A stretch of 64,000 nucleotides of DNA from Coleophoma eucalyptorum (lineage: Eukaryota > Ascomycota > Leotiomycetes > Helotiales > Dermateaceae), in the NCBI GenBank assembly GCA_026120035.1, contig JALRME010000022.1:372001-436000 (forward strand), in the 5' to 3' direction. Below, one piece after another: positions 5,000 through 64,000 of the stretch. A model generated the notes under the pieces. The model made no database searches and was not told the origin of the DNA. It saw nothing but the letters and a program-made list of their open reading frames with translations. Numbering within the stretch: the first letter of the stretch is position 1; each line of letters begins with the position of its first letter. The position numbers and the translations under genes are program-made.

Positions 5000-5339
5000 A
5001 TCATTCTTTCCGCATTATGTTACGCGCAGTTATTTTGTTATGTTTAAAGAGTACTCGAAAAATGCATAATGGTTTCTATATGCATTAAGTTGTTAAAAAG
5101 AGTGAAGCGACTGACTACGGAACTATTGACCTAATTATCATATCTTTCACCATGAATGACTGACACTGCAGCTCTCAGTATCACCATAATTGTTTTATTA
5201 ACATAGTCATTATCCATCGCTTTCCTCGACTAACTATTTGTAGCACTATCATATGAAAAGATTGTGTTACAATCCTCCACGGATAAGGTGATCTTTATGT
5301 ACGAATAAGCATGAATGTGCAGTTTATAATCTTTGGTTA
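5000..5339. other. Convergent 3' intergenic region
   Basis: 340 bp of AT-rich sequence lie between the 3' ends of the dehydrogenase (plus strand) and the first Zn2Cys6 factor (minus strand). It probably holds both polyadenylation regions. No gene or repeat was seen. Confidence 0.5.
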
Positions 5340-7773
5340 TCAAACACCGTCATAATCTTCAGCCCACTGCTCTTTCAGCGATTGGATAATGCCTTCCATC
5401 CTCCAACCTGTTGTCTCTTCCATCTGAAGTAGAAAAGAAAGAGCAGCTTCCTGGTCCAATTCATCTCTTAGTACTCCTCCCCCTAGTGTCATCAGTTGAT
5501 ATAAAATACTATGCCATTTGGGAAGACTCACAAACGGACAACGCATGGCGAGCAGTGAACATTGTATTTTGACAACGTTTATTTGAAATTGAGAGCCCTA
5601 AAACAATACGAAGGTGGTTGCGGACTTTGTTCTGTACCTTTATCAGTACGTTATATTATATTGGGACAGTGGGGCGCTATATACTTCCAACTCTCGGCCT
5701 TCTCGAAGGCTCGCATATCCAGAGGTGGAAGCTCGAGGTCCTGAGATTGCAAGGACAATTTTTGCAATGTGGTAGTATTGCATCCCAACCACTATACCAT
5801 TAGCATTGCAGATTCAAAATTAAAGACAGAACATACCATGAGAAGGCATGAGCATCCAAATCTCCGGAAAGGCACGTTGTTGCGTTTTGCTTCTTGGGTT
5901 GAATAGGATTGGCGCAAAGATTGAACCTTTACCATTCGCCCACTCACCTATCTCTCGGTTGATCTGATGCAATTTCTCCATATCTGCGTCACGCGCAGGA
6001 TGGAATACACAACTGAGGAGTTTCGCTAGCAAGAAAACCATGTGATTAGCCACTGATATATCATCGTCATTTTTAAATGTTCTGCTCTCGTGGTAATTCT
6101 CGAGATGAGTTCGCAGTGGTTGCTGGGACACCAGGGAGACGTAAATATCTTCTCGTAGGCATAGCCAAGCTGCAGCTTCGCCGAGACCACCGGAAGAAGC
6201 AAACATTGCCACGGAGTTCAACATTCGTGTAGTTCCTATGAGGTGACATCGTTGGTCAAATGCTATTGTTTTCTTAGCTACACGCTCGCCAGTAGAGAGA
6301 AGACCATTACCATCTAGCTCTTCGTATTGCCGTAAAATCGCAACTGCTGCAAGTATGTCTTCATTCATACTATCTTTCGGATTTGAAAGAATGGGAATGA
6401 GATATTCCAGGCATTTATTATGATATTCCACCGCTTCCGTCTCTTCGTAGTTAGAACATCGACTAACATGCCGTGAGGAGAATGCGAAGATTGCATATCT
6501 CAGAACAGGCTGGTCCATTGCTCTCCGGGGGACCACAACTTCAAAATGTCGCTCTGGATCTGTAACATCGGCCTATATGGAGGGTGAGCCAATATTAAAT
6601 TACGTTCCATAATTTTTCATTTACCCAAAGCGCCATATTCTCGATGAAATTTCTCATCAATAGAGCTTCCCTTGGAGTGAAAGGCGAACTGTGAAATGTT
6701 ATATCTCCCAATTCACCAAACGAAGCAGTTGAACTGGGAGATTCATGTAATGGGCTGGCAGCTGCAATGGAGTGGAACAGAGGTGGTAATTGCCAGATCT
6801 GTCTGTCTTGGAAGGACTGTGATATGGATAAATCAATATGAGCAATGTTAAGATCTTCGTCATTAACATGCTCATGAGCATGGCCGAAATTACTATGCAT
6901 CTCGTGCTCTCCTATGTTTTTTATATGTTCAATGGTCTGGTTTGGATGCGATGTTTCAGGGTTCGAGGAATCTCCATGGCTATTGTCTGGAGCGACAACA
7001 AGGTTACCATAGTGCTCAACAATCGATCCCTAAAATATATATTAGTAATACATTATTATTTTAGCTGGTCACAAACCTTCTCATAACGGCGAGGCTCGTC
7101 TTGAAATGACGACGGCCTCGCTGTTTCGTTTGGTGCATGTGTTGGCAATTGAGGTGAAGGCATGGCGATTGAGTGATCTTGAGGGCCATTCATATGTCCC
7201 AAATTATCCTTCATTTCAATATCGGTGTTCTGAATCAATTCTCCTTCGTAAAACCGCACTAAATTTGCTGTTTCATCCATATATCGAACTCCAAAATTAG
7301 CAATATACAACAATGGGTTTCATGTTGAGGCTCACGGTCTGTGGATGGCGAAATCCATATTTGGTCCTCTGAATATGACAGATCCATATCGTTGATAGAC
7401 CTTGGATGGCACCGAAAGCGAATATTAATTTCTCTTATGCACTCGATCGCACTTTCGTGACATCGAGTACAGGAAGGTATGCTTTCGTCACCTGAGAATG
7501 ACTAAGGTGAGCCGAACAGAAAACAAAAACAAAGAGGTCGAGGTGCATGCGTACATTTCAAATGGAGAGCTATTATGAGGCCATATCAGCAGGCGCAGTC
7601 GGAATTGCGAGAAAAGGACAAGGCAGGACTTACCGCGGCAGTTTTGGCTGTCATGATTGTCAGTTGTGCCTGTAAAGTAGTGTCGAAGGGATAAAAGCGG
7701 GTGCATACCATACTGTCTTAACTCTCTTAACTGCAGACGACTCGGGCGCCGATTTACTTGTCAGAGCCATCAT
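5340..7773 (-). CDS. Zn(II)2Cys6 transcription factor with ten exons, two of them micro-exons
   Basis: Exons on the minus strand: 7773-7709, 7648-7635, 7569-7555, 7491-7336, 7288-7077, 7029-6625, 6572-5837, 5791-5685, 5637-5532, 5482-5340; 652 aa. All nine introns are 45-65 nt GT-AG and every junction keeps frame. The splice reconstitutes a zinc cluster with exact CX2CX6CX6CX2CX6C spacing (CQNCRALHLKC, then CTRCHESAIEC). It is followed by a basic IREINIRFR stretch and the DLSYSEDQIW element seen in ARCA-like factors. The rest matches the fungal-specific regulator domain: a LLMRNFIENMALW helix, then DPERHFEVVVPRRA, a SSRHVSR segment, and FTARHALSVWGG with TGWR near the C-terminus. It should be a nuclear DNA-binding regulator. 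It lies next to the inositol-type genes, so it could control them, but nothing in the sequence proves it. A second in-frame ATG at 7770 is equally possible. Confidence 0.85.
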
Positions 7774-18147: not shown

Positions 18148-19486
18148 CTATATTACAATATCCTCTTTCTCAGCCTTCCATTCAGCTAAATTTTTGTAGG
18201 ATAACAAGGTATATGGGTGATCGGGTCCGATGACAAGTTTCCGTAATTGTATGCAATCCTCCATAAGCCTTATGCTTTCAGCTTTTTTACCCATTTCTTT
18301 CCACGTAGATGCAAGGTTGTTCATGCTAGTTAATGTCTCAGGATGGTCCGCTCCGAGTTTCTTCTTGCGAGCCTCCATTACTTGCACTTCTAGGTTTTCA
18401 GCTATATCCCATCGGCCTTGATTCCCGTACGTTAACGCCAGATTGCCCATACTTGTAAGCGTGTCTGGATGGTCCTCTCCGAGTTTCTTCTTGCGGGTCT
18501 CCATTACTTGCACCTCGAGGTCTTTGGCTGCATCCCATCGGCCTTGATTCCTGTACGTCGACGCCAGGTTGCCCATACTTATAAGCGTGTTTGGATGGTC
18601 TGCTCCGAGTTTCTTCTTGAAAGTCTTCATTACTTGTACCTCGAGGTCCTCAGCTGTATCCCATCGGCCTTGGTTCCTATACGTCGATGCTAGGTTACCC
18701 ATACTTATAAGCGTGTCTGGATGGTCCGCTCCAAGTCTCTTCTTAGAAATCTCTATTACTTGCACCCCAAGGTCTTCAGCTGCCTCCCATCGGCCTTGAT
18801 TCATATACGTCGACGCTAGGTTACCCATACTTATAAGCGTGTATGGATGTTCCTCTCCGAATTTCTTTTTACGAGCCTCCATTACTTGTACCTCGAGGTC
18901 TTCAGCTGCCTCCCATCGGCCTTGATTCCTATACGTAATCGCTAGGTTACCCATACTTGTAAGCGTGTCTGGATGGTCCGCTCCGATTCTCTTCTTAGAA
19001 ATCTCTATTACTTGCACTTCGAGGTCTTCAGCTGCCTCCCATCGGCCTTGATTCATATATGTCGACGCTAGGTTATCCATACTTGTAAGCGTGTCTGGAT
19101 GGTCCGCTCCGAGTTTCTTCTTGCGGGTCTCCATTACTTGTACCTCGAGGTCTTCAGCTGCCTCCCATCGGCCTTGATTCCTATACGTAATCGCTAGGCT
19201 ACCCATACTTGTAAGCGTGTCTGGATGGTCCGCTCCGAGTTTCTTCTTGCGGGTCTCCATTACTTGTACCTCGAGGTCTTCAGCTGCCTCCCATCGGCCT
19301 TNNNNNNNNNNNNNNNNNNNNNNNNNNNNNNNNNNNNNNNNNNNNNNNNNNNNNNNNNNNNNNNNNNNNNNNNNNNNNNNNNNNNNNNNNNNNNNNNNCT
19401 TGATTCCTGTACGTCGACGCTAGGCTACCCATACTTATAAGCGTGTATGGATGTTCCTCTCCGAGTTTCTTCTTACGAGCCTCCAT
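18148..19486 (-). repeat. Tandem 126-bp (42-aa) TPR repeats
   Basis: Going down from 19260, full units occupy 19260-19135, 19134-19009, 19008-18883, 18882-18757, 18756-18631, 18630-18505, 18504-18379 and 18378-18253, with a diverged last partial unit to 18148. One more unit, 19486 to 19261, is interrupted by the gap. The consensus contains KKKLGADHPDTLTSMGNLAS and TYRNQGRWEAAEDLEVQV. Inner units are nearly identical in DNA; the last two have diverged. This pattern points to recent unit exchange or duplication. Confidence 0.93.
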
Positions 19487-21356
19487 TACTTGCACGAATA
19501 GCACTTCAGCTGCGTCCCATTGACCCCTAAGGTTATGTGCTAAGCCTACCATTGCTATACAATTCAGTGTTTCGTGGTGCTCTTGACTATAAACCCCTCT
19601 TGTAGCTTTCAATGCCTGAGCCGACATCTTCTCTGCCTCCACTCCATTCCCCATTCTCAATGCGTACCATGCTACCTTATATAGTATTAAAGCCCAATCT
19701 CTTAACGACTCTTGTTCCTCCGGTTGCTGTACTACTGCTAATTGCGCGTGTGGGAATAGCGCCTGACACGTTACCCAATTCTCATATTCTCCTGTCGGTA
19801 GCTCTATGCAAAGGTTTCTAAGAAACTTTTGTTTCCACTTCTCTTGCTGCCCGTGAGCTTCCAGCCATTTTCGCGTGGCTAGCTGAACCAATCTATGCAT
19901 TTCGAAGGTGGTGCCGTCCGTATTAGTAGAGATAAATGAGTAATTCCGTAGGGCCGAGACATCATCCTCAAATTCATCATTCACACCAGATCCATCATTC
20001 ACACTAAATCCTTTATTCACACTAGATCCATCGCTCATGCTATATTGCAATGTGTTATCTTCATCGTCTTCGCTAGAACCGCTATTAGCACAACTGTCAC
20101 CGTTGCTCTCTTCCTCGGCTTGCCGCAAGTTTCTCTGTTCGCTTCGATGACGAAGCAATATCTCAGGGATTCCTTGCCGGTCAAAAAAGCTCATAAGTGA
20201 TAATAAATCAGCAGCAGAGGGTCGAGTTACACGGATATGATCGAATGATATTTGCCATGTAATAATAATAGAGTTCTTTGCTTCCCAATCTCGACGGAGC
20301 TGTTCGCCTTCATAGTTAAGGAGACCTGCTTTCTTACGATCGCTTTTCCGAAAGTCCTGAAGGTACTTTTGTATAGAATAGCGTGGCGCTCTGTGGGAGA
20401 TATATGCGGCTGCTTGAACGATAGCAAGCGGCATAAGCTCGAGCTCTATAGTAAGCTCGGTAGCGATATCGTCGTCCACTTGTATATCCTCCCCTAGCTT
20501 GTTCTTAAAGAGTGTCAGCGCATCCGCCTTGCTCATCGGCTCGATTGTAATAATATCGCGCTGTTCAACCAGCTTTAGCGCCTCATTTCTGCTCCGTGTT
20601 GTCATGAGTATCGATCCATTCGGGCACTGTGGGAGATATGATTTAAGCGGTCGTAAGTCCTCACTATCTATGTCGTTCATTGGCCTATGCTGTTCTGTGC
20701 TTGGGGCCTCAACGAGGAAGCTAGCATCATCCACATTATCAAGTATAAGAACCCACTCCCCCTTCTTGTTATTGTGCAGCCAGTCATGCACAAGTTGGAA
20801 TATATTTGTCTTCGGATTCTCCCGCCCGGGGATTTTGGCGCAGTTTGCAATATCTCGAAAGCTCTGTTCAAACCGGGCCGCGTTGCTTGCGTGGACCCAG
20901 AAAACCCACGTTTCTAGCGATCGGACCCGTGTTCGATAGGCGTATTCGATGGCAAGTTGCGACTTGCTTCGCGGTAGTTAGTTCTAGCATCTAGCATCTA
21001 GCATCCGCCGCAACGGGAACGTTTGTGCCTACCCAACACCCCCCAGACCAACGAGCGCGATCCGAGACTGCGCTTTCCGTGACTTTAAGTAAGCACAGTT
21101 CTCATGGATCCGATCAAGTATTGATTCTCTCTCGACAAAGTCTATGTCACGACTGAAGGGTATGACGGCCGATGGCTTCGGTGGAGTTTCTGGTCGCTCT
21201 GCGCGAGCCGTCATTAGCGCCCATTAGCTGCCGTTCTGGGACCTTTGGCGACTCACCAGGAGGGGCATGGTGATGAAAATCATTATGAACTTGACCGTTA
21301 ATAATTCCGGCCTGAAAGGCGGAGTTGAAGTCGCCAAATAATATCGTCGATGCCAT
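18148..21356 (-). CDS. NB-ARC/TPR NOD-like receptor with N-terminal amyloid-type motif; contains assembly gap
   Basis: Exons: 21356-21257, 21198-21033, 20966-18148 (the last crosses 97 Ns). Exon 1 codes almost only for a Gly/Asn motif (residues 4-23, core FNSAFQAGIINGQV). Exon 2 and the start of exon 3 form the NB-ARC head: PFSRDIDFVERE, then Walker A GLGGVGKSQLAIEY, whose glycine codon is split by intron 2. VLILDNVDDA (Walker B), GSILMTTRSR, MPLAIVQAAAYI (GLPL-like) and MHRLVQLATRKWL (MHD-like) follow. The C-terminal part is at least nine 42-residue TPRs of kinesin-light-chain type. There is no effector domain at the N-terminus, only the motif, which fits a receptor that acts on a separate effector, the divergent gene at 21545. 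Such STAND proteins oligomerise when their repeats bind a ligand. The gap shifts the apparent frame, but flank analysis suggests the frame is intact (about 1,000 aa or more). Confidence 0.85.
19302..19398. other. Assembly gap (97 Ns) inside the TPR repeats
   Basis: Left flank ends ...CGGCCTT and right flank begins CTTGATTCC, while an intact unit reads CGGCCTTGATTCC. The two flanks hold 41 and 88 nt of one 126-nt unit, 129 in total, so they overlap by exactly CTT. The true insert is therefore 126n minus 3 nt, where n counts missing units and may be zero. The number of Ns is not the real length. Confidence 0.85.
19977..20030 (-). repeat. Three 18-bp units in the receptor's linker
   Basis: Three imperfect copies of an 18-nt unit (19977-19994, 19995-20012, 20013-20030) encode a six-residue repeat around SVND/DGSG. 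They fall in the acidic, disordered-looking linker between the NB-ARC head and the TPR domain. Copy number is likely to vary between strains. Confidence 0.75.
20984..21005. repeat. Three tandem 7-bp units in receptor intron 2
   Basis: Plus strand: TAGCATC repeated three times within the 66-nt intron that splits the Walker A codon. It is a small slippage-type repeat with no obvious function. Confidence 0.7.
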
Positions 21357-21544
21357 CGCAGTACTGATTTTTTGTTACAAAGTGCAAACAGCAACTGAGC
21401 TTGGTCGTCTGGCTGGCTATCTTCAGCCGCACAGCATGGGTTGGTTACCTTCCAATCACATTGGGCGCCTCAAAGCCCTCCGCTCAAGCTTCAGATCTTT
21501 ATCAAACTGTGTCTGAACCCAGTTTCTATTATCACTAAGCACAA
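21357..21544. promoter_or_regulatory. 188-bp bidirectional promoter of receptor and effector genes
   Basis: The two start codons face away from each other with only 188 bp between them, far shorter than other divergent intervals in the window (about 440 to 3,400 bp). Both genes must share promoter DNA, so linked expression is likely. Confidence 0.65.
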
Positions 21545-22438
21545 ATGTCTGATCCTCTCAGCATTACCGCCAGTATCATAGGTATTACAGTACCAGCCTT
21601 GCACGGCACACGACTCCTTCTAGAAGATCTGCAGCAGCTCAAAGATGCACCCAAGACCTTTCAGCGCCTAATGGAAGACGTGAACTCTGTTGGCACAGTA
21701 CTCAAGTTGGTCCAGAGTGTGGAGGATAGGGAATGGGAGTTACTAGGCGTAGATATAGCTGAGCAGTCAAAAACGACGATTAGTAGCTGCACAGAAGCAT
21801 GTAACCTTTTTAGAACCGACCTCCAGCGGTGGACTAGGCACTCACAAGATGGAAAACTAGCATGGCAGGATCGAGCAAAGGTGGGCTTCTTTAAGCAAGG
21901 GCAAATCAAAGCAATATCAGAGCAGCTTTCAAACTGCAAGCTCTCTATTAATACTGTCGTCAGTATAGCAACCTTGTAAGTAATTAACTGTGATTTGATC
22001 GTCTCAATGCTAATTCTGCCTTATAGATATAACTCTGTCCGTCATAGCCATATCACGGAAGAGATCAAGAAGACAATATCTACAAAACATGCCGAGGTCA
22101 AGGATGCTATTACCACAGCGGACAAGCAGCTGGTAATATTAGAGCACAATCTAGAACAGCTAAACTTCAGCGGCGATGATGATGATGAAGCTTCTGAACC
22201 CAGGGAAGACAAACACGAGGCTTTGCAACAACTTGAAGAAGAACTCAAAGCCGTGAAAGCGTCGCAGAGGCTGCTAGATGAGCTGCTGTCCAAGTCGCGC
22301 GAAGAAGCTGTTGCGAAAGCCGCAGGGGTCCAGAGCCCTTCAACCACGACGACGGTGACGTTCGGTAATCAGAACTCAGGCTTTCAAGCTGGGATCATCA
22401 ATGGCGGAGTTAGTGGGCTCAGATTTGGACCAAACTGA
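21545..22438 (+). CDS. HeLo-like cell-death effector candidate with C-terminal amyloid-type motif
   Basis: Exons 21545-21975 and 22027-22438, with a 51-nt intron, give 280 aa. The N-terminus, MSDPLSITASIIGITVPAL, followed by an all-helical region to about residue 150, resembles the fungal HeLo-like N-terminal domain family (PF17111 type). Members related to HET-S and HELLP disrupt membranes and kill the cell. Residues 150-250 are charged and coiled-coil-like with an acidic DDDDEASEPRED stretch. The last 28 residues carry TVTFGNQNSGFQAGIINGGV (253-272), matching 14 of 20 positions of the receptor's N-terminal motif. Known role of the family: the receptor's motif nucleates an amyloid that templates the effector's motif and frees the helical domain. 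For this pair that is inference. It could also be an uncharacterised regulatory partner rather than a killer. Confidence 0.8.
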
Positions 22439-29974: not shown

Positions 29975-31157
29975 CTTGGGCCGAATAGGAGATTATGGCT
30001 GGGTTCAGTGAAAAGTCTTACGTGGCTGTGAAAATATAATGGCTCTTTGCATTTTTCCCCCAAGAGACATTTACCTGAATATATACTTGCTAGTCTCCTG
30101 ATGTCCTAACCATAACAGATTCAAACGAATGGGCAGCTAAGCAAAAGTTGAAGGTCGAATTACCCGGAGCCAGCGGGCATATACAATGACTACAAAGCCT
30201 ATTAGCATTACATCATGGCACGGCAAGCAATTTGCCATAGGAGATTCAAAGGATAGATGCAAATGTGGACCAAGCCTGAGCCTGGCAAGAAGTAAACTCA
30301 ACACGCTACGGGGGATGTCTCCGCATGGCACATATGACGGATTCTGGGTACTTTCCGTGTTAATGAATATCATGCTGATTGGGTACCTTATCTAGTAAGT
30401 ACTTACCAATGGGGATTCTACCGTGTAGGTATATTCTAGAAAGTCGTGCATGGCTACGTAACTTATAACAGTTCTGCCGTGTCGGTCGGCAAATTTCAAG
30501 TCGTCTGATTCTGCCGGACGGTTCCGCAGATATATCCCGGTCGAAGAATGACCTAGATGCAAATGATGCCACCATGATCATACTGTAGTGGAACGATGTT
30601 TGTGCTCTCCGTCATTGAATGCGGAAGTTTTAGTCTTACTAGGGAGACGAGGAGTTTGCAGCAGGACATGTAGCTAACCGCAAGATTATACTGCAAGGCT
30701 GAGGCCGAGGTATACATTAGATTATGTGGTGACGCCAATCAAATGGTTCCATAAGACCAGGTATCAGCAAAGAGTTGAATATATAAGGAGTAGATATTGA
30801 GAAATCGACATAGTCCTTGGCTTATATATTCTTGGTTAAACATGCAAATGGCAATTCACCTTTGCAAACACCAAGAGTTTATCGCTTCAATCACGTGTGG
30901 AGTCAATATCTGCTTTGGTAGCTAGTGTAGATACAATGCTTCTATACAAGGCTCTGGGTATTGGTAAGAGCTTATGGATAGCTCGTAGACTGTGCTAGAG
31001 TGATATTCAATAATCGAATTTTATCATATGTATATATCAGTGCCATTTTCGGCTAGTCTATACTGATTAATAGAATTAGGTCAGCCTGCGGAGCAGCCAT
31101 CACTCTCAATAGAAGCCTCACTCAATCACCATTTCTTATCAAGACCCATGCCGAGCT
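29975..31157. other. Intergenic, 1.2 kb
   Basis: Between the 5' ends of the SnoaL-like gene and the HET-domain pseudogene. AT-rich, only short open frames, nothing recognised. Confidence 0.45.
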
Positions 31158-33596
31158 ATGGAGTCGTACTCCTATACGCCACTAGACCCCTCTCGCAATC
31201 AGTTCCGTTTGTTGGTTCTCAAGTATAATTTGAAGGCAAGCGACGGTATTATCGGCCCGGAACCTCTCTCTGGGAGCCTAAAATGCTACAGTATTCCCGC
31301 TGCTGGACTCTCTACTAGCTCGCGTGCCTTCCGAGGTCTAAGGCTCCCGGGCTACCAGGCATTGTCTTATGTCTGGGGTGATGCAACTCCGACAAAGGAG
31401 ATCATCATAGATGGCAAACGGCTTCTCATTGCAGCCAACCTCTACGATGCGCTGACACATTTCAGACTGTACAACTATTCGGAGGTAAAGGTCTGGGCCG
31501 ATGCAATATGCATAAACCAAGATGATCTCTCAGAAAAGTCCTCTCAGATCCTTCTGATGCGTCAGATCTATAGCCTTGCTTCTGATGTGAGCATCTGGTT
31601 GGGACATAGTACTAAGGACAGTAAGAAAGTCATTAGCTTTGTCAATATACTCACATGGGGCGGGGATCCTGAGGATGAGAGTGAAAGTGAAGATGATTCT
31701 CGAATCACGCATGTCATCAACTCCGTGGGCACAACTCTGCTCCTTCGGCCAGTCGGAAAGCTACAGCAAGGTGTAATGGTCCTTGATCAAGTTGTCAGTC
31801 TCTTTGAAGAGATGATAGATATTGCAATGGGTGAGGATTCAGGAGGTCTTGTCACAGATGAAGAGGGATCCTTTTCACTTGAGCAAGAAGCCATTCTCGA
31901 ATTAATCAACTGGAAGCCAAAGCCCGCGCGGCTAAAAAAGGTCCAAGGCTACGATTTTCATGAGATAGCTGGGTTGATAAGTAAGCTTCTCATAGATGGG
32001 CCAGAGTGGTTTGAACGAATCTGGGTTGTCTAAGAAGCCGGCACTGCGCTCGGTATAAGAATTCGACATGGGAAATACGATCTGAGTTGGGCAGACTTTC
32101 TTTGTGCCGTTCACTACCTCCATTATTCGTGCAATATTTATATTCCAAATATCCGCAAGATTACTGCCATCGAGATCATTCGGCTTGCATGGGGGAATCA
32201 CAAACGTCAAGCGTTGAGAGACCTCATTGTTGAATGCCGCCACCGTTGCTCCTCTGACCCTCGAGATAAGATCTATGCCTTGCAGGGTTTAATGGGCGAT
32301 CCTTTGACGCCATATCTTGAGCCCGATTATCACAAGCCGGTCACCGAGGTATATTCCAATGCGGCCCTTCACATTATTACACAAGATTCATCTTTAAACC
32401 ACATATGTGGCCAGCAGGCTGAAAACCGCCGGGAGGGGCTACCATCTTGGGTACCAGACTATGAGTTGGACCGTAGTCTCTGTGCAGCCTCATTAGTTCC
32501 ATTGCTGGGACGAAATACAGTTTTCAATGCAGCAGGACAGAGTTACCAACAACGGTATGCATTCAAGGACCCCGTTAGTCTGAGTGGACACTGGTCTATT
32601 TTACCCACTCAAGGCATCTGTCTCGATGACATTGCCCGCACCTCTGTCTCCCCTAATACTGGAGATAAGCAAGAACCTGGGAAAGCCGAGAAGGATTGGC
32701 TGGCACTTCTTACCAATGCTCCAGAAATATCTCAAGATCTACCATCATCTACACGCAACTTCCTGGAGCATATTTCACAGGTTGTGGGAATTTATAGTGA
32801 CTTCCTGATCTCCGGTTACGAAGCAGTCGTGTTTAAGAAGCTAAACAGCATGTCTTTGTCGGAAGCAAGTCTGCTTAATCCCGATCTTCACGAGACTAAT
32901 GTTCAAGAGGAAGGTGTTAGCATGCCGATATTGCACGAAGCAAAAGGGACAGACTCAGTGTTGAGTGCATATATTGCTACTCTACTTTCCGGCCGCGTTT
33001 CCTCTAAGGAACGACTTGATCCAGAAAAGCACTACTCGAAGATTTTCTACCCATTACCGCCACTACCAAAACGACCCCAAATCGAAAGTCCTCCATCTTC
33101 CAGCTCACGTATAGCAAAGCTTAAATCCTTCTCTGTATCGTCGTTGAATCTATCAAGGTCAAATTCCGATCTACCCAACGAGTCAACTCTATCTACCCCT
33201 ACAAATGATCAGACCGTCTCGAATCAAAAACCAAATTCGAGCTTTGCATCGCTCGAGTCAAGTCCATTTATTAAACAAATTGCACGCATGTTTTCGGCAG
33301 GTATCACGCGCCGAAATCTAATGGTAACACGGACAGGAATGATAGGTTCCTCTCCCCAATATGCTAAGCCCGGGGATAAGGTCTGTATTCTGTGGGGTTG
33401 CGATGTGCCTGTTGTTTTGCGGCCAACGACGGATCCTTTCGTGGATGATGGTACAACACCAAGCCTTTCAGGCTCTAACAATCAAGCGACTTATGAATTC
33501 ATTGGAGAATGCTATTTGCATGGCTATATGGATGGTGAGGCTCTCTCGGGCGTTGCCGATGGCCGTTTTGAGGTGCAGGAATTCATGTTAAGATAA
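31158..33596 (+). pseudogene. HET-domain gene interrupted by a single in-frame TAA
   Basis: One frame of 813 codons from ATG 31158 to TAA 33594-33596 is open except for a TAA at 32031-32033. Before it: LSYVWGDATPTKEI, WADAICINQDDLSEKSSQ and RQIYSLASDVSIWLG, the standard HET (heterokaryon incompatibility) elements, ending FERIWVV. After the stop the frame continues EAGTALGIRI, DPRDKIYALQGLMGD and the usual C-terminal GDKVCILWGCDVPVVLRP and FIGECYLHGYMDGE. The family has Gln at the stop (RIWVVQE; the intact paralogue near 62.9 kb reads NRVWVVQE). One C-to-T change (CAA to TAA) therefore explains the break. It may be a null allele segregating in the species, a young pseudogene or a sequencing error. 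As read, only the first 291 residues would be made. Confidence 0.82.
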
Positions 33597-60883: not shown

Positions 60884-63673
60884 TTACATAAGTAACACAT
60901 AAGTCTTCTCGCCAATTTCATGACTCAAGACAGCATCAGTTTGCATGTTTTCATCTCGCATGGCCATATACGTCAATTCAAGTGCCTCGTTAGCTTCAAC
61001 TAGATCCTCCTGGGCCATTTTAATTTCTGTAGGCAGTTTGGCATTTTCCTCAGCCCATAAAGCCCCCCTCCACCACCAATCGAGTTTATCTACCTCTCTA
61101 TCGCGTTTGAAGGTTTCTCTGTCAACATAATTACGAAACAAAAGTCTTCCAAATACCTCTCGTCCTTCCATATCGCCATCTTCCTCACAAAGTTTCATGA
61201 CATGTAGCACCATTCTCGTTAAATCAGATTGGCGACGCTGCATAAGTTCTCTGAGCTCTTGTGCGCAAAGCTCAAGATTCGAAGCTGTGACTTCTTGGTT
61301 ATGGAATCGCTGGGCATGAGACGCTTGGTTTGAAAACAACCTTCCATGCCGGTTTGTCATGTGCGCCATATTGGTTTTTGCCATGTTCTTATGCTTCCAT
61401 GCTTGCATGCCTTCACCATCCATCAAGCCGTGTGCGTAACAATCTCCTATAAGTTCGTGGCATAGACTTTGCTTCACATGGTCAAACCAAGATAATTTGT
61501 CAGCCATAGAGTTTTGGTGCGTATTTCCTCCTCGGCGAAGGATAAATGGAACTCGGCATCCGGCCAGGACGTATACTTCATCATCTTTTTTAATTCCGAC
61601 TGGGCCAAGACCTATACTACCGTCGTATGTTGTAAAAAAGCGCCGACGATTTATCGCTAGTTTGATAGCAGTATCTATGTCTTGCATAAGGACCGAGGAT
61701 TCCTTAGTTTGGAGCTGACAGGATCCTTTCATATCGTTTATCATTTCCGCCATCGAATCTCTGTCAACTTGAAGGGGGCAATGGGTAGTAATCCAGGCTG
61801 CGACACACCACAGCTCACTCTCATGTAATCGACGATGTCTGCGGTTGCCGTCACTATCAATTATAGGTAGGACGTCTGCGCATATAGTCCTCAAAAAACA
61901 ATCAACTTGTTCTTTAAGGCTGCCCAAATTCCTTTGGGCTCTGGGGTCGTCGTTGGCCAATTTTGCCCATTTCCAAACCAGCGTGCCGAGTTCCTCGTTG
62001 GAAAAGTTTGCCTCTCCAGTGTCTCTAATTATTCCTACATGCAACCCTGGACACTCTAGGAAACCGCCATGGTTTTGCAGGAACAGTGGTCCATCACTTC
62101 GATCAGAATAGAAATTACAGAGACACTGTATATCATCATCCCTAAACGGAATCTGATTTCTCCCAGAACCCAAGAGTGCGTGAGTGGGTTTCCATGCATG
62201 GGTGCCTATGATTTTATCGACATCTGCTAAGGATTTGATACCATCGATTTTTTGTTCATTATTCTCATTATATTTGAGTAGCATGCGTTGCAGGTGCCTT
62301 TGAACGCCTTGGCTGGTTGGATATCTAGTGAATTTTAAAGAATTCATCTTTGTTTTACTATTGGGTGGTAAAGGGTGCACGGTATAGACCGCTCTGCCAC
62401 CAGACGCATCATAGCTGTCTATTTCTTCAGCTCGGCGCCGGTCGAGATCGTCATATGTAGCTGTCCAATCCACGACCCACGAAGGCAGATCTCCGCGATT
62501 TTTTCGGCCAAGGTCTCCTCTCAATACGTCCAGAGATTCTGATCTTCCTATAATATCCAAAACTGTATTGGTAAAGACTTCGGTCGTCGTAAGGGAGTAA
62601 TTAGGCTTAATGGAGGATAACTCGCCAACAAGACCGAGTAGCGCGTATACTTTATCGCGATCATCTGTTGCTCTTCTATCGCTGAACTGCCGTAGCAAAG
62701 GCATTAAAGCCATCTCCTCGTTCATCTGCCATCGAACACGCATTCGATGGATATCCCAAACAATCCGTGAGAAGAAAGCCAGAACATTTTTGTGATCGGA
62801 TGCTAGAGATGAGAACAAGCTGGAGTATGAATTGGTAGCGTAGAATTTTGCAGCTCTGACAAAGATAGACCAAGGGGCAACCATAGAACCAAATTGCAAG
62901 GTAATCTCCTTGGCCACGACAATCTCCTGGACGACCCATACTCGATTCCACCAAGCCGCACACATCACAACTCTCAGTGCTTCGAACACATTTGTTACAT
63001 AAACTGAGTCGATGTGGTTCTGATTAAGATGATCGAATAGAGTATTTCGGATGTTATCCGTGCTGGTACTTTGTGCAAGAAGGCTGATAAGGCAGAAAGC
63101 TTCCCGCCAGTAGTCCAGTCCAGCTTTGAGTAGTTCTTTCAAGGGCTTTTCTGAGATGCAGTTACTCTGAAACCGCTGTATCTCTTGTGCGTCCGATATG
63201 TTCCCGTGAAAGAGTAAAGTTGGACTTGTTCGTCTAGACTTGGGTGTGCCTCCTAAGAAGCTATGACGCATGGGTTCTCCCAAATACATAACTACCTCTG
63301 TTGCACGGGAATATATTTCCCTCATAAGCTCAACTTGTTGGGTTCTCTCCACATTGTCAATTTGATTGATGCATAGCGCATCTATCCATATCGTTATGTG
63401 TTCTTTGGTGTCTCGAAGTCTGTGTAAAGCAGACTCAAGATTGATGGTAACCTCAACTACATGGTCGTTCAACAGAATTTGGCGCTTCGGTGCTCCCGAC
63501 GCACCCCATACGTACGATAGAGCTTTAAAACTGGGTTTGTTGGCCAGCGAAACTTGGATTAGTTCTGTTTTTATTTTGTCCCCCGACTGGCCTGAGATGA
63601 TCGTGACTAGGCGTATATCACCCACAGGAAGAGGCGGGTACAGGCCATGCTTTTCGTCCAAAGTCTCAACCAT
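60884..63673 (-). CDS. Intact HET-domain protein
   Basis: Intronless, 929 aa from ATG 63673 (the frame is open 31 codons further up to 63766, but the start MVETLDEKHGLYPPLP fits the family better). HET-domain elements: FKALSYVWGASGAPKRQI, IWIDALCINQIDNVERTQQ, LMREIYSRATEVVMYLGEP and NRVWVVQEIVVAKEITLQFG. Next comes RRATDDRDKVYALLGLVG, and near the end LAGCRVPFILRRGG and ELIGDCYAHGLMDGEG. A charged helical tail follows (residues 800-929). HET proteins trigger vegetative incompatibility or cell death when partnered with an incompatible allele, but most in a genome have no known partner. Confidence 0.9.
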   Translation of the reverse strand: MVETLDEKHGLYPPLPVGDIRLVTIISGQSGDKIKTELIQVSLANKPSFKALSYVWGASGAPKRQILLNDHVVEVTINLESALHRLRDTKEHITIWIDALCINQIDNVERTQQVELMREIYSRATEVVMYLGEPMRHSFLGGTPKSRRTSPTLLFHGNISDAQEIQRFQSNCISEKPLKELLKAGLDYWREAFCLISLLAQSTSTDNIRNTLFDHLNQNHIDSVYVTNVFEALRVVMCAAWWNRVWVVQEIVVAKEITLQFGSMVAPWSIFVRAAKFYATNSYSSLFSSLASDHKNVLAFFSRIVWDIHRMRVRWQMNEEMALMPLLRQFSDRRATDDRDKVYALLGLVGELSSIKPNYSLTTTEVFTNTVLDIIGRSESLDVLRGDLGRKNRGDLPSWVVDWTATYDDLDRRRAEEIDSYDASGGRAVYTVHPLPPNSKTKMNSLKFTRYPTSQGVQRHLQRMLLKYNENNEQKIDGIKSLADVDKIIGTHAWKPTHALLGSGRNQIPFRDDDIQCLCNFYSDRSDGPLFLQNHGGFLECPGLHVGIIRDTGEANFSNEELGTLVWKWAKLANDDPRAQRNLGSLKEQVDCFLRTICADVLPIIDSDGNRRHRRLHESELWCVAAWITTHCPLQVDRDSMAEMINDMKGSCQLQTKESSVLMQDIDTAIKLAINRRRFFTTYDGSIGLGPVGIKKDDEVYVLAGCRVPFILRRGGNTHQNSMADKLSWFDHVKQSLCHELIGDCYAHGLMDGEGMQAWKHKNMAKTNMAHMTNRHGRLFSNQASHAQRFHNQEVTASNLELCAQELRELMQRRQSDLTRMVLHVMKLCEEDGDMEGREVFGRLLFRNYVDRETFKRDREVDKLDWWWRGALWAEENAKLPTEIKMAQEDLVEANEALELTYMAMRDENMQTDAVLSHEIGEKTYVLLM

Positions 63674-64000
63674 CTGGTAGAATCTGTGTTTGTATCTGTG
63701 TAGCAGATGGTTGATCAATGATGTATGGAAGGTATAGTATCCGATCTCAAGGTGGCATTCGAACAATATCGCGAATCAGTGAGGCTGTGCCTCCAGAGTA
63801 GTTGAGGGAAATAGGTCATCTCAGCCTCAGCAAGCAGCACGTTGAACATCTCACGTGAGTCCGTCTTACCTACTTGTTGGTTCTAGAAGGGCTGCCTCCA
63901 ACAAGAGGATACAGTCAAGATTGTACTTATTCCTGAATATTAGTAGTCCAAATAGCCAATACTATGCCTACAATATATCTATACCTGCAATCTCAGGCTC
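63674..64000. other. Upstream region of the HET gene, right end of window
   Basis: 327 bp holding the start of the minus-strand HET gene's leader and promoter. No further gene begins within it. Confidence 0.5.

What the first reader, a model, noticed from the sequence alone, without database searches (positions are those of the whole stretch)
18148..22438. Divergent NOD-like receptor / HeLo-like effector pair sharing an amyloid-type motif
Seen: the receptor's first exon codes for TILFGDFNSAFQAGIINGQV right after the start, and the neighbouring 280-aa protein ends with TVTFGNQNSGFQAGIINGGV; 14 of 20 positions are identical. The receptor has NB-ARC and TPR domains but no effector domain. The neighbour has a HeLo-like helical N-terminus. 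Established: het-S/NWD2 and HELLP/PNT1 are adjacent gene pairs in which a receptor N-terminal motif templates an amyloid on the effector's C-terminal motif, causing cell death. The Q-x-G core (FQAG) recalls the pseudo-palindromic PP motif and animal RHIMs. Inference: this locus is a cell-death pair of that type with its own motif variant.
Basis: partly seen in the sequence, partly recalled or inferred. Interest (0 to 1): 0.9.

Follow-up and report, generated by a model that had tools for sequence, protein, structure and literature searches.

The report
Fungal amyloid-motif cell-death gene pair
Two neighbouring genes in a filamentous fungus look like an immune-type receptor and its killer protein, sharing a short motif that should pass an amyloid fold from one to the other; it is a new example of a known kind of fungal cell-death switch, with one odd letter in the receptor's motif.

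Summary
A NB-ARC/TPR receptor (minus strand) and a 280-residue PF17111 (HeLo-like) protein (plus strand) start 189 bases apart. The receptor's first exon and the effector's C-terminus share a 20-residue motif with 14 identities, 10 of them through different codons. Profiles made only from other species' receptors find the effector motif, and the reverse. Both genes lie on one contig in 14 other records, next to each other in four. Best reading: an NLR/HeLo-like amyloid signalosome that works like PNT1/HELLP (PP motif) of Podospora. The motif is not private to this locus: it is in effector relatives from five classes of Pezizomycotina and resembles Pfam Ses_B, used in print as the PP profile. 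Neither window motif reaches that profile's cut-off, so strict PP membership is not met here. The window's receptor alone has Ala at the first glycine of the GxQxG core; that glycine is present in 52 of 53 receptors and 102 of 102 effectors. Amyloid formation, seeding and killing were not testable. Verdict: new member of a known kind, moderate interest.

The parts
18148..21356 (-). Receptor gene (NLR): N-terminal motif, NB-ARC, DUF7779 match, TPR array; three exons
   Evidence: splice model; Pfam; P-loop GLGGVGKS at residue 84
21288..21347 (-). Receptor-side motif, residues 4-23 (TILFGDFNSAFQAGIINGQV)
   Evidence: found by a profile of relatives' effectors at E 1.3e-5
21033..21198 (-). Receptor exon 2: linker (ERPETPPKPS...) and P-loop
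   Evidence: the linker recurs in relatives
18341..19301 (-). TPR array after the gap, 126-base units, 7.6 copies, 87% matches
   Evidence: TPR_10 2.7e-122
19302..19398 (.). Run of 97 N inside the TPR array; true length unknown
21357..21544 (.). Short shared intergenic region between the two start codons
   Evidence: start-to-start distance 189
21545..22438 (+). Effector gene, 280 aa, two exons (21545-21975, 22027-22438), PF17111 (HeLo-like)
   Evidence: PF17111 2.2e-21; 208 homologues
22352..22411 (+). Effector-side motif, residues 253-272 (TVTFGNQNSGFQAGIINGGV)
   Evidence: found by a profile of relatives' receptors at E 1.8e-8; Ses_B 15.4 bits, below cut-off 23.2

Best explanation
A two-gene fungal amyloid signalosome that works like PNT1/HELLP. 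SHOWN: a NB-ARC/TPR receptor with a short motif in place of an N-terminal effector domain, divergently adjacent to a PF17111 (HeLo-like) protein whose C-terminus carries the same motif; both genes and both motifs recur together in other fungi. INFERRED: a ligand is sensed by the TPRs, the NB-ARC oligomerises, the clustered N-terminal motifs nucleate a cross-beta seed, the seed templates the unstructured C-terminal motif of the effector, and the helical HeLo-like domain then disrupts the plasma membrane and kills the cell. The motif is a divergent relative of the PP (RHIM-like) motif. Templating strength in this strain is uncertain because the receptor's first core glycine is alanine.
Confidence: 0.85

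Rival explanations
1. The pair is of this type by descent, but in this strain the receptor no longer templates well (altered GxQxG core), and the effector acts under another trigger or the pair is decaying.
For: The window's receptor is the only one of 53 with a non-Gly two residues before the Gln; 102 of 102 effectors keep Gly. The receptor motif gives no Ses_B match at E <= 10. A decayed second effector tail lies elsewhere in the genome.
Against: The rest of the motif, the reading frames outside the gap, the P-loop and the effector are intact. Gly to Ala is a mild change, and relatives with a changed Gln in one partner also exist (P0148; P0011, P0013). A sequence error is possible.
Confidence: 0.2
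2. The shared motif is a non-amyloid docking element that joins receptor and effector by ordinary binding.
For: Nothing here shows amyloid; the motif is short and unstructured in the homologue's model.
Against: The same short motif, not a complementary one, sits on both partners and resembles the PP profile. PP motifs form prions and activate HELLP in Podospora (PMC7885112, abstract and passages).
Confidence: 0.08
3. The similarity is chance, low complexity or a recent copy.
For: The motif is short and rich in N and G.
Against: Leave-out profile E-values 1.8e-8 and 1.3e-5; only 4 of 14 identical residues keep the same codon; the motif recurs in both partners in other fungi.
Confidence: 0.01

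Closest known systems
PNT1/HELLP of Podospora anserina (Pa_5_8060/Pa_5_8070), PP motif (PMC7885112)
   Same: Two adjacent genes; NB-ARC/TPR receptor with N-terminal motif; HeLo-like effector with the motif at its C-terminus; G-x-Q-x-G core in the effector
   Different: Second Asn usually at +5 from the Gln (80 of 102 effectors, 49 of 53 receptors) where the printed core is NxGxQxGxN (PMC9815663); window motifs under the Ses_B cut-off; receptor core AxQxG. HELLP and PNT1 sequences were not at hand for a direct alignment
CgPNT1/CgHELLP/CgSBP of Chaetomium globosum (PMC7885112)
   Same: NLR and HeLo-like effector sharing a PP motif
   Different: Three genes there, including a putative lipase; only two motif copies were found in this window
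NWD2/HET-S and FNT1/HELLF of P. anserina (HRAM motifs)
   Same: NLR motif expected to template the C-terminal motif of an adjacent HeLo or HeLo-like protein
   Different: HRAM effectors carry two 21-residue repeats (PMC5485727); here there is one copy; no Pfam HET-s match was reported
RHIM of RIPK1/RIPK3
   Same: G-phi-Q-phi-G core in the effector
   Different: Resemblance of five residues, not tested by any search here; the receptor core departs from it; other protein architecture

Membership tests
Fungal NLR/effector amyloid-motif pair (NWD2/HET-S-type two-component system) | NLR gene adjacent to an effector gene | tested here: met
   Starts 189 bases apart, divergent
Fungal NLR/effector amyloid-motif pair (NWD2/HET-S-type two-component system) | NLR has NB-ARC or NACHT plus repeats, with a short motif instead of an effector domain | tested here: met
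   NB-ARC 36.7 bits, TPR_10/TPR_12, no N-terminal domain found
Fungal NLR/effector amyloid-motif pair (NWD2/HET-S-type two-component system) | Same motif at the NLR N-terminus and the effector C-terminus | tested here: met
   14 of 20 identical; leave-out profiles E 1.8e-8 and 1.3e-5
Fungal NLR/effector amyloid-motif pair (NWD2/HET-S-type two-component system) | Effector has a cell-death (HeLo or HeLo-like) domain | tested here: met
   PF17111, 76.7 bits, cut-off 27.2; killing itself not tested
Fungal NLR/effector amyloid-motif pair (NWD2/HET-S-type two-component system) | Motifs form amyloid and cross-seed | not testable with these tools
   Needs peptides or fusions
PP-motif class (PNT1/HELLP) | Motif over the curated cut-off of Pfam Ses_B (PP profile of PMC8086366) | tested here: not met
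   Effector 15.4 bits or 16.3 as a peptide, receptor no match, cut-off 23.2; the relative P0167 reaches 24.0 as a peptide and 18.1 as a whole protein
PP-motif class (PNT1/HELLP) | Printed core NxGxQxGxN | tested here: not met
   Effector NSGFQAGIIN: first part met, second Asn one residue later; receptor NSAFQAGIIN: also lacks the first Gly. Whether published members vary likewise could not be read
PP-motif class (PNT1/HELLP) | Cross-seeding with [pi] prions | not testable with these tools
   Bench test
HeLo-like (PF17111) family | Profile match over the cut-off | tested here: met
   76.7 bits; 50 of 50 relatives scanned match at E <= 0.1
HeLo/MLKL four-helix-bundle fold | Structural match standing out above unrelated bundles | tested here: inconclusive

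The most novel reading that the evidence does not exclude
The motif F-G-x-x-N-S-G-F-Q-A-G-x-I-N-G-x-V is one shared, uninsulated amyloid code across most of Pezizomycotina, distinct from canonical PP by its spacing, so that any receptor of the class could seed nearly any effector; the window's receptor would then be a natural core variant that separates the first core glycine from the rest of the motif.
Probability: 0.3. Interest if true: 0.55.

Novelty: new member of a known kind. Interest (0 to 1): 0.36.

Why it matters
It adds a clean, conserved two-gene case to fungal amyloid immunity and gives more than 150 natural motif sequences from both sides of one switch (103 effectors and 53 receptors aligned), in which the core is nearly fixed. 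The window's own receptor changes the one glycine that no other listed member changes, so the role of the GxQxG core in templating becomes testable with natural peptides. It also shows that such proteins sit in public databases under misleading names (azaphilone pigment cluster protein, cytochrome P450, kinesin).

Tried and rejected
Chance or recent copying as the source of the match: rejected.

Pair-specific co-variation of the motifs: sought, not found. Over 14 contig groups, the window included, best within-group identity averages 11.64 against 11.61 in 20,000 shuffles, P = 0.50. The Seiridium pair (P0089/P0135) was left out because its effector model lacks the first half of the motif.

Further motif copies: the nine other PF17111 places that I count were all fetched (L002-L010) and showed no comparable motif. 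In 8,513 six-frame segments of the window and the 42 loci then held, only the two window motifs score well (52.7 and 52.3 bits, next 7.6; both had trained the profile). Motifs split by introns would be missed. A decayed effector tail with a stop codon lies at C65:89149-89364; the NLR about 5 kb away is of another kind (NB-ARC/TPR, HET by eye).

Solved structures by sequence: the motif profile's best hit is an esterase at E 0.076 and the effector's best is E 0.8; nothing relevant. Foldseek: no hit at E <= 0.001 for the full-length homologue or the window's exon-1 domain. VIA rows for the full-length model are mixed helical bundles without MLKL among the 50 shown. HET-s HeLo entries were not among the rows shown.

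Literature: four exact motif strings gave no paper in the held library. This does not show that the pair is unpublished; the NLR07/PP set of PMC9815663 (296 NLRs) may well contain relatives.
Full report
What is there. The window lies in a 45.3-Mb genome of 101 contigs. Two genes start 189 bases apart and point away from each other. The left one (minus strand) is an NLR-type receptor: a 100-base first exon with the motif, a short second exon with the linker and the P-loop, and a long third exon with the rest of the NB-ARC, a DUF7779 match and a TPR array of 126-base units. A run of 97 N breaks the array; 97 is not a multiple of three, so if the gene is intact the printed gap length is not the true one. 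The right gene (plus strand) has one 51-base intron and codes for 280 residues. The splice models are mine; there are no RNA data.

Is the shared motif real? Yes. Of 20 aligned residues 14 are identical, and 10 of those 14 use different codons in the two genes, so the match is held at the protein level and is not a fresh DNA copy. Profiles made without the window sequences, from the opposite partner in other species, recover each motif at E 1.8e-8 and 1.3e-5 among 2,013 window segments. A composite receptor N-terminus searched against the whole genome returned 24 places. Two of these cover the whole motif: receptor exon 1 (E 6.9e-12) and the effector's C-terminus (E 0.0087). A third, weak row (E 0.25) begins inside it (only the tool's best candidates are scored, so this is a lower bound).

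Relatives. The effector has 208 homologues at E <= 0.001, 120 of them listed; the closest named ones are 76-77% identical (Hyaloscypha finlandica, Acephala macrosclerotiorum). The motif profile hits 104 of 121 effectors including the window's; 16 of the 17 misses are 251 aa or shorter, and one (P0082) is full-length. It hits 53 of 62 receptors including the window's. Thirteen sequences of each side, the window's included, trained that profile, so the counts are partly circular; the sequences can be read directly. Five named effector relatives that I looked up belong to Leotiomycetes, Lecanoromycetes, Eurotiomycetes, Dothideomycetes and Sordariomycetes (one species each). The Eurotiomycete one (Exophiala, P0034) and a Chaetothyriales relative (P0053) have Ala in place of the core Gln, and the looked-up Sordariomycete's gene model (Seiridium, P0089) lacks the first half of the motif; the class of other names rests on my own knowledge.

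Pairing elsewhere. By organism and contig length, both genes are on one contig in 14 other records: Hyaloscypha finlandica, Acephala, Botrytis fragariae, Leptodophora, two Leptodontidium, Tricladium, Mollisia, two Cadophora, Rhexocercosporidium, Trapelia, Seiridium and an unnamed JGI contig. Three have consecutive locus tags (Leptodophora 485/486, Cadophora M221 14029/14030, Trapelia 9216/9217). The JGI contig is 3,872 bases long and the two proteins need about 3,450 of them, so they must be neighbours if the two rows are the same contig (matched by length and source only). For the other ten the distance is unknown. These contigs were not fetched. Three receptors of the same type have a SesA (P0173) or HET (P0176, P0179) domain and no motif hit, the domain-for-motif swap expected if the motif stands in for an effector domain.

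Which known class? The effector domain is PF17111, called HeLo-like in PMC9815663 (passage) and PigL_N in the present Pfam. PMC8086366 (passage) uses Pfam Ses_B as the profile of the PP motif. Ses_B matches the effector at 15.4 bits, or 16.3 as a peptide, and the receptor motif not at all, against a cut-off of 23.2. It matches 19 of 26 motif peptides at E <= 1, best 1.4e-6, 8 of 10 peptides, and 24 of 50 whole effectors at E <= 0.1. One peptide (P0167) reaches 24.0 bits, though the whole protein scores 18.1. The motif is thus related to PP, but the window's copies fail the curated threshold. I file the locus under the wider kind, NLR/effector amyloid-motif pairs, and say that it works like PNT1/HELLP, not that strict PP membership is shown. 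PNT1 is a NB-ARC/TPR receptor and HELLP its adjacent HeLo-like partner (PMC7885112, section 6). The printed PP core NxGxQxGxN (PMC9815663) differs by one step: here the second Asn is at +5 from the Gln in 80 of 102 effectors and 49 of 53 receptors, and at +4 in 2 and 3. I could not read the published logos or obtain the HELLP and PNT1 sequences, so I cannot say whether this spacing is new.

Two residues before the Gln, Gly is present in 102 of 102 effectors with a letter there and 52 of 53 receptors; the exception is the window's receptor, with Ala. It may be a sequence error, a weakened template or a tolerated change. It is the main reason to doubt that this particular receptor signals at full strength.

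Results against. No co-variation of motifs within pairs (P = 0.50). PP scores under the threshold. A core substitution in the receptor. Unspecific fold matches. No expression or amyloid data.

Papers, what I saw. PMC9815663: outline, sections 19 and 24, passages. PMC5485727: parts 1 and 2 of 4. PMC7885112: passages and section 6. PMC7889193, PMC12258605, PMC12261475, PMC8086366, PMC4986451: passages. PMC3321046: search listing only.

Noticed in passing
21308-21320 (-), receptor motif core: Ala where 52 of 53 receptors and 102 of 102 effectors have Gly.
   Followed up: partly
19302-19398: 97-base run of N inside the TPR array; the flanking repeat phase suggests a repeat-related assembly gap, so the TPR number is unknown.
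   Followed up: partly
G000:C65:89149-89364 (L042 about 2649-2864): Decayed remnant of a second effector C-terminus, with an in-frame stop and a frame break, about 5 kb from an NB-ARC/TPR gene of another kind.
   Followed up: partly
L003:951-4949 and 5220-6651 (G000:C37): A 1,332-aa open frame with NPHP3_N (NTPase) and WD40-type matches lies just before another PF17111 gene on the same strand; no motif of the present kind seen there. Possibly another NLR/effector neighbourhood.
   Followed up: no
31113-32033 (+) and 60884-63775 (-): Two HET-domain (PF06985) genes in the same window, 90.3 and 97.2 bits.
   Followed up: no
P0011, P0013, P0034, P0038, P0053, P0087, P0118 (effectors) and P0148 (receptor): Relatives in which the core Gln itself is replaced (N, A, V or L in effectors, E in the receptor).
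   Followed up: no
names given by sources: Effector homologues are named azaphilone pigment cluster protein or cytochrome P450, and receptor homologues kinesin or kinesin light chain: probable misannotation.
   Followed up: no
P0016 and P0019 (Pseudogymnoascus sp. WSF 3629, VE00_10179 and VE00_10182): Two effector homologues three locus tags apart, both rows with a longest contig of 55,014 bases, suggesting local duplication.
   Followed up: no
P0155 (Cadophora sp. M221 receptor homologue): The receptor model ends in an aminoglycoside-phosphotransferase-type (APH, PF01636) kinase-like domain, 41.0 bits; either a fusion or a gene-model error.
   Followed up: no
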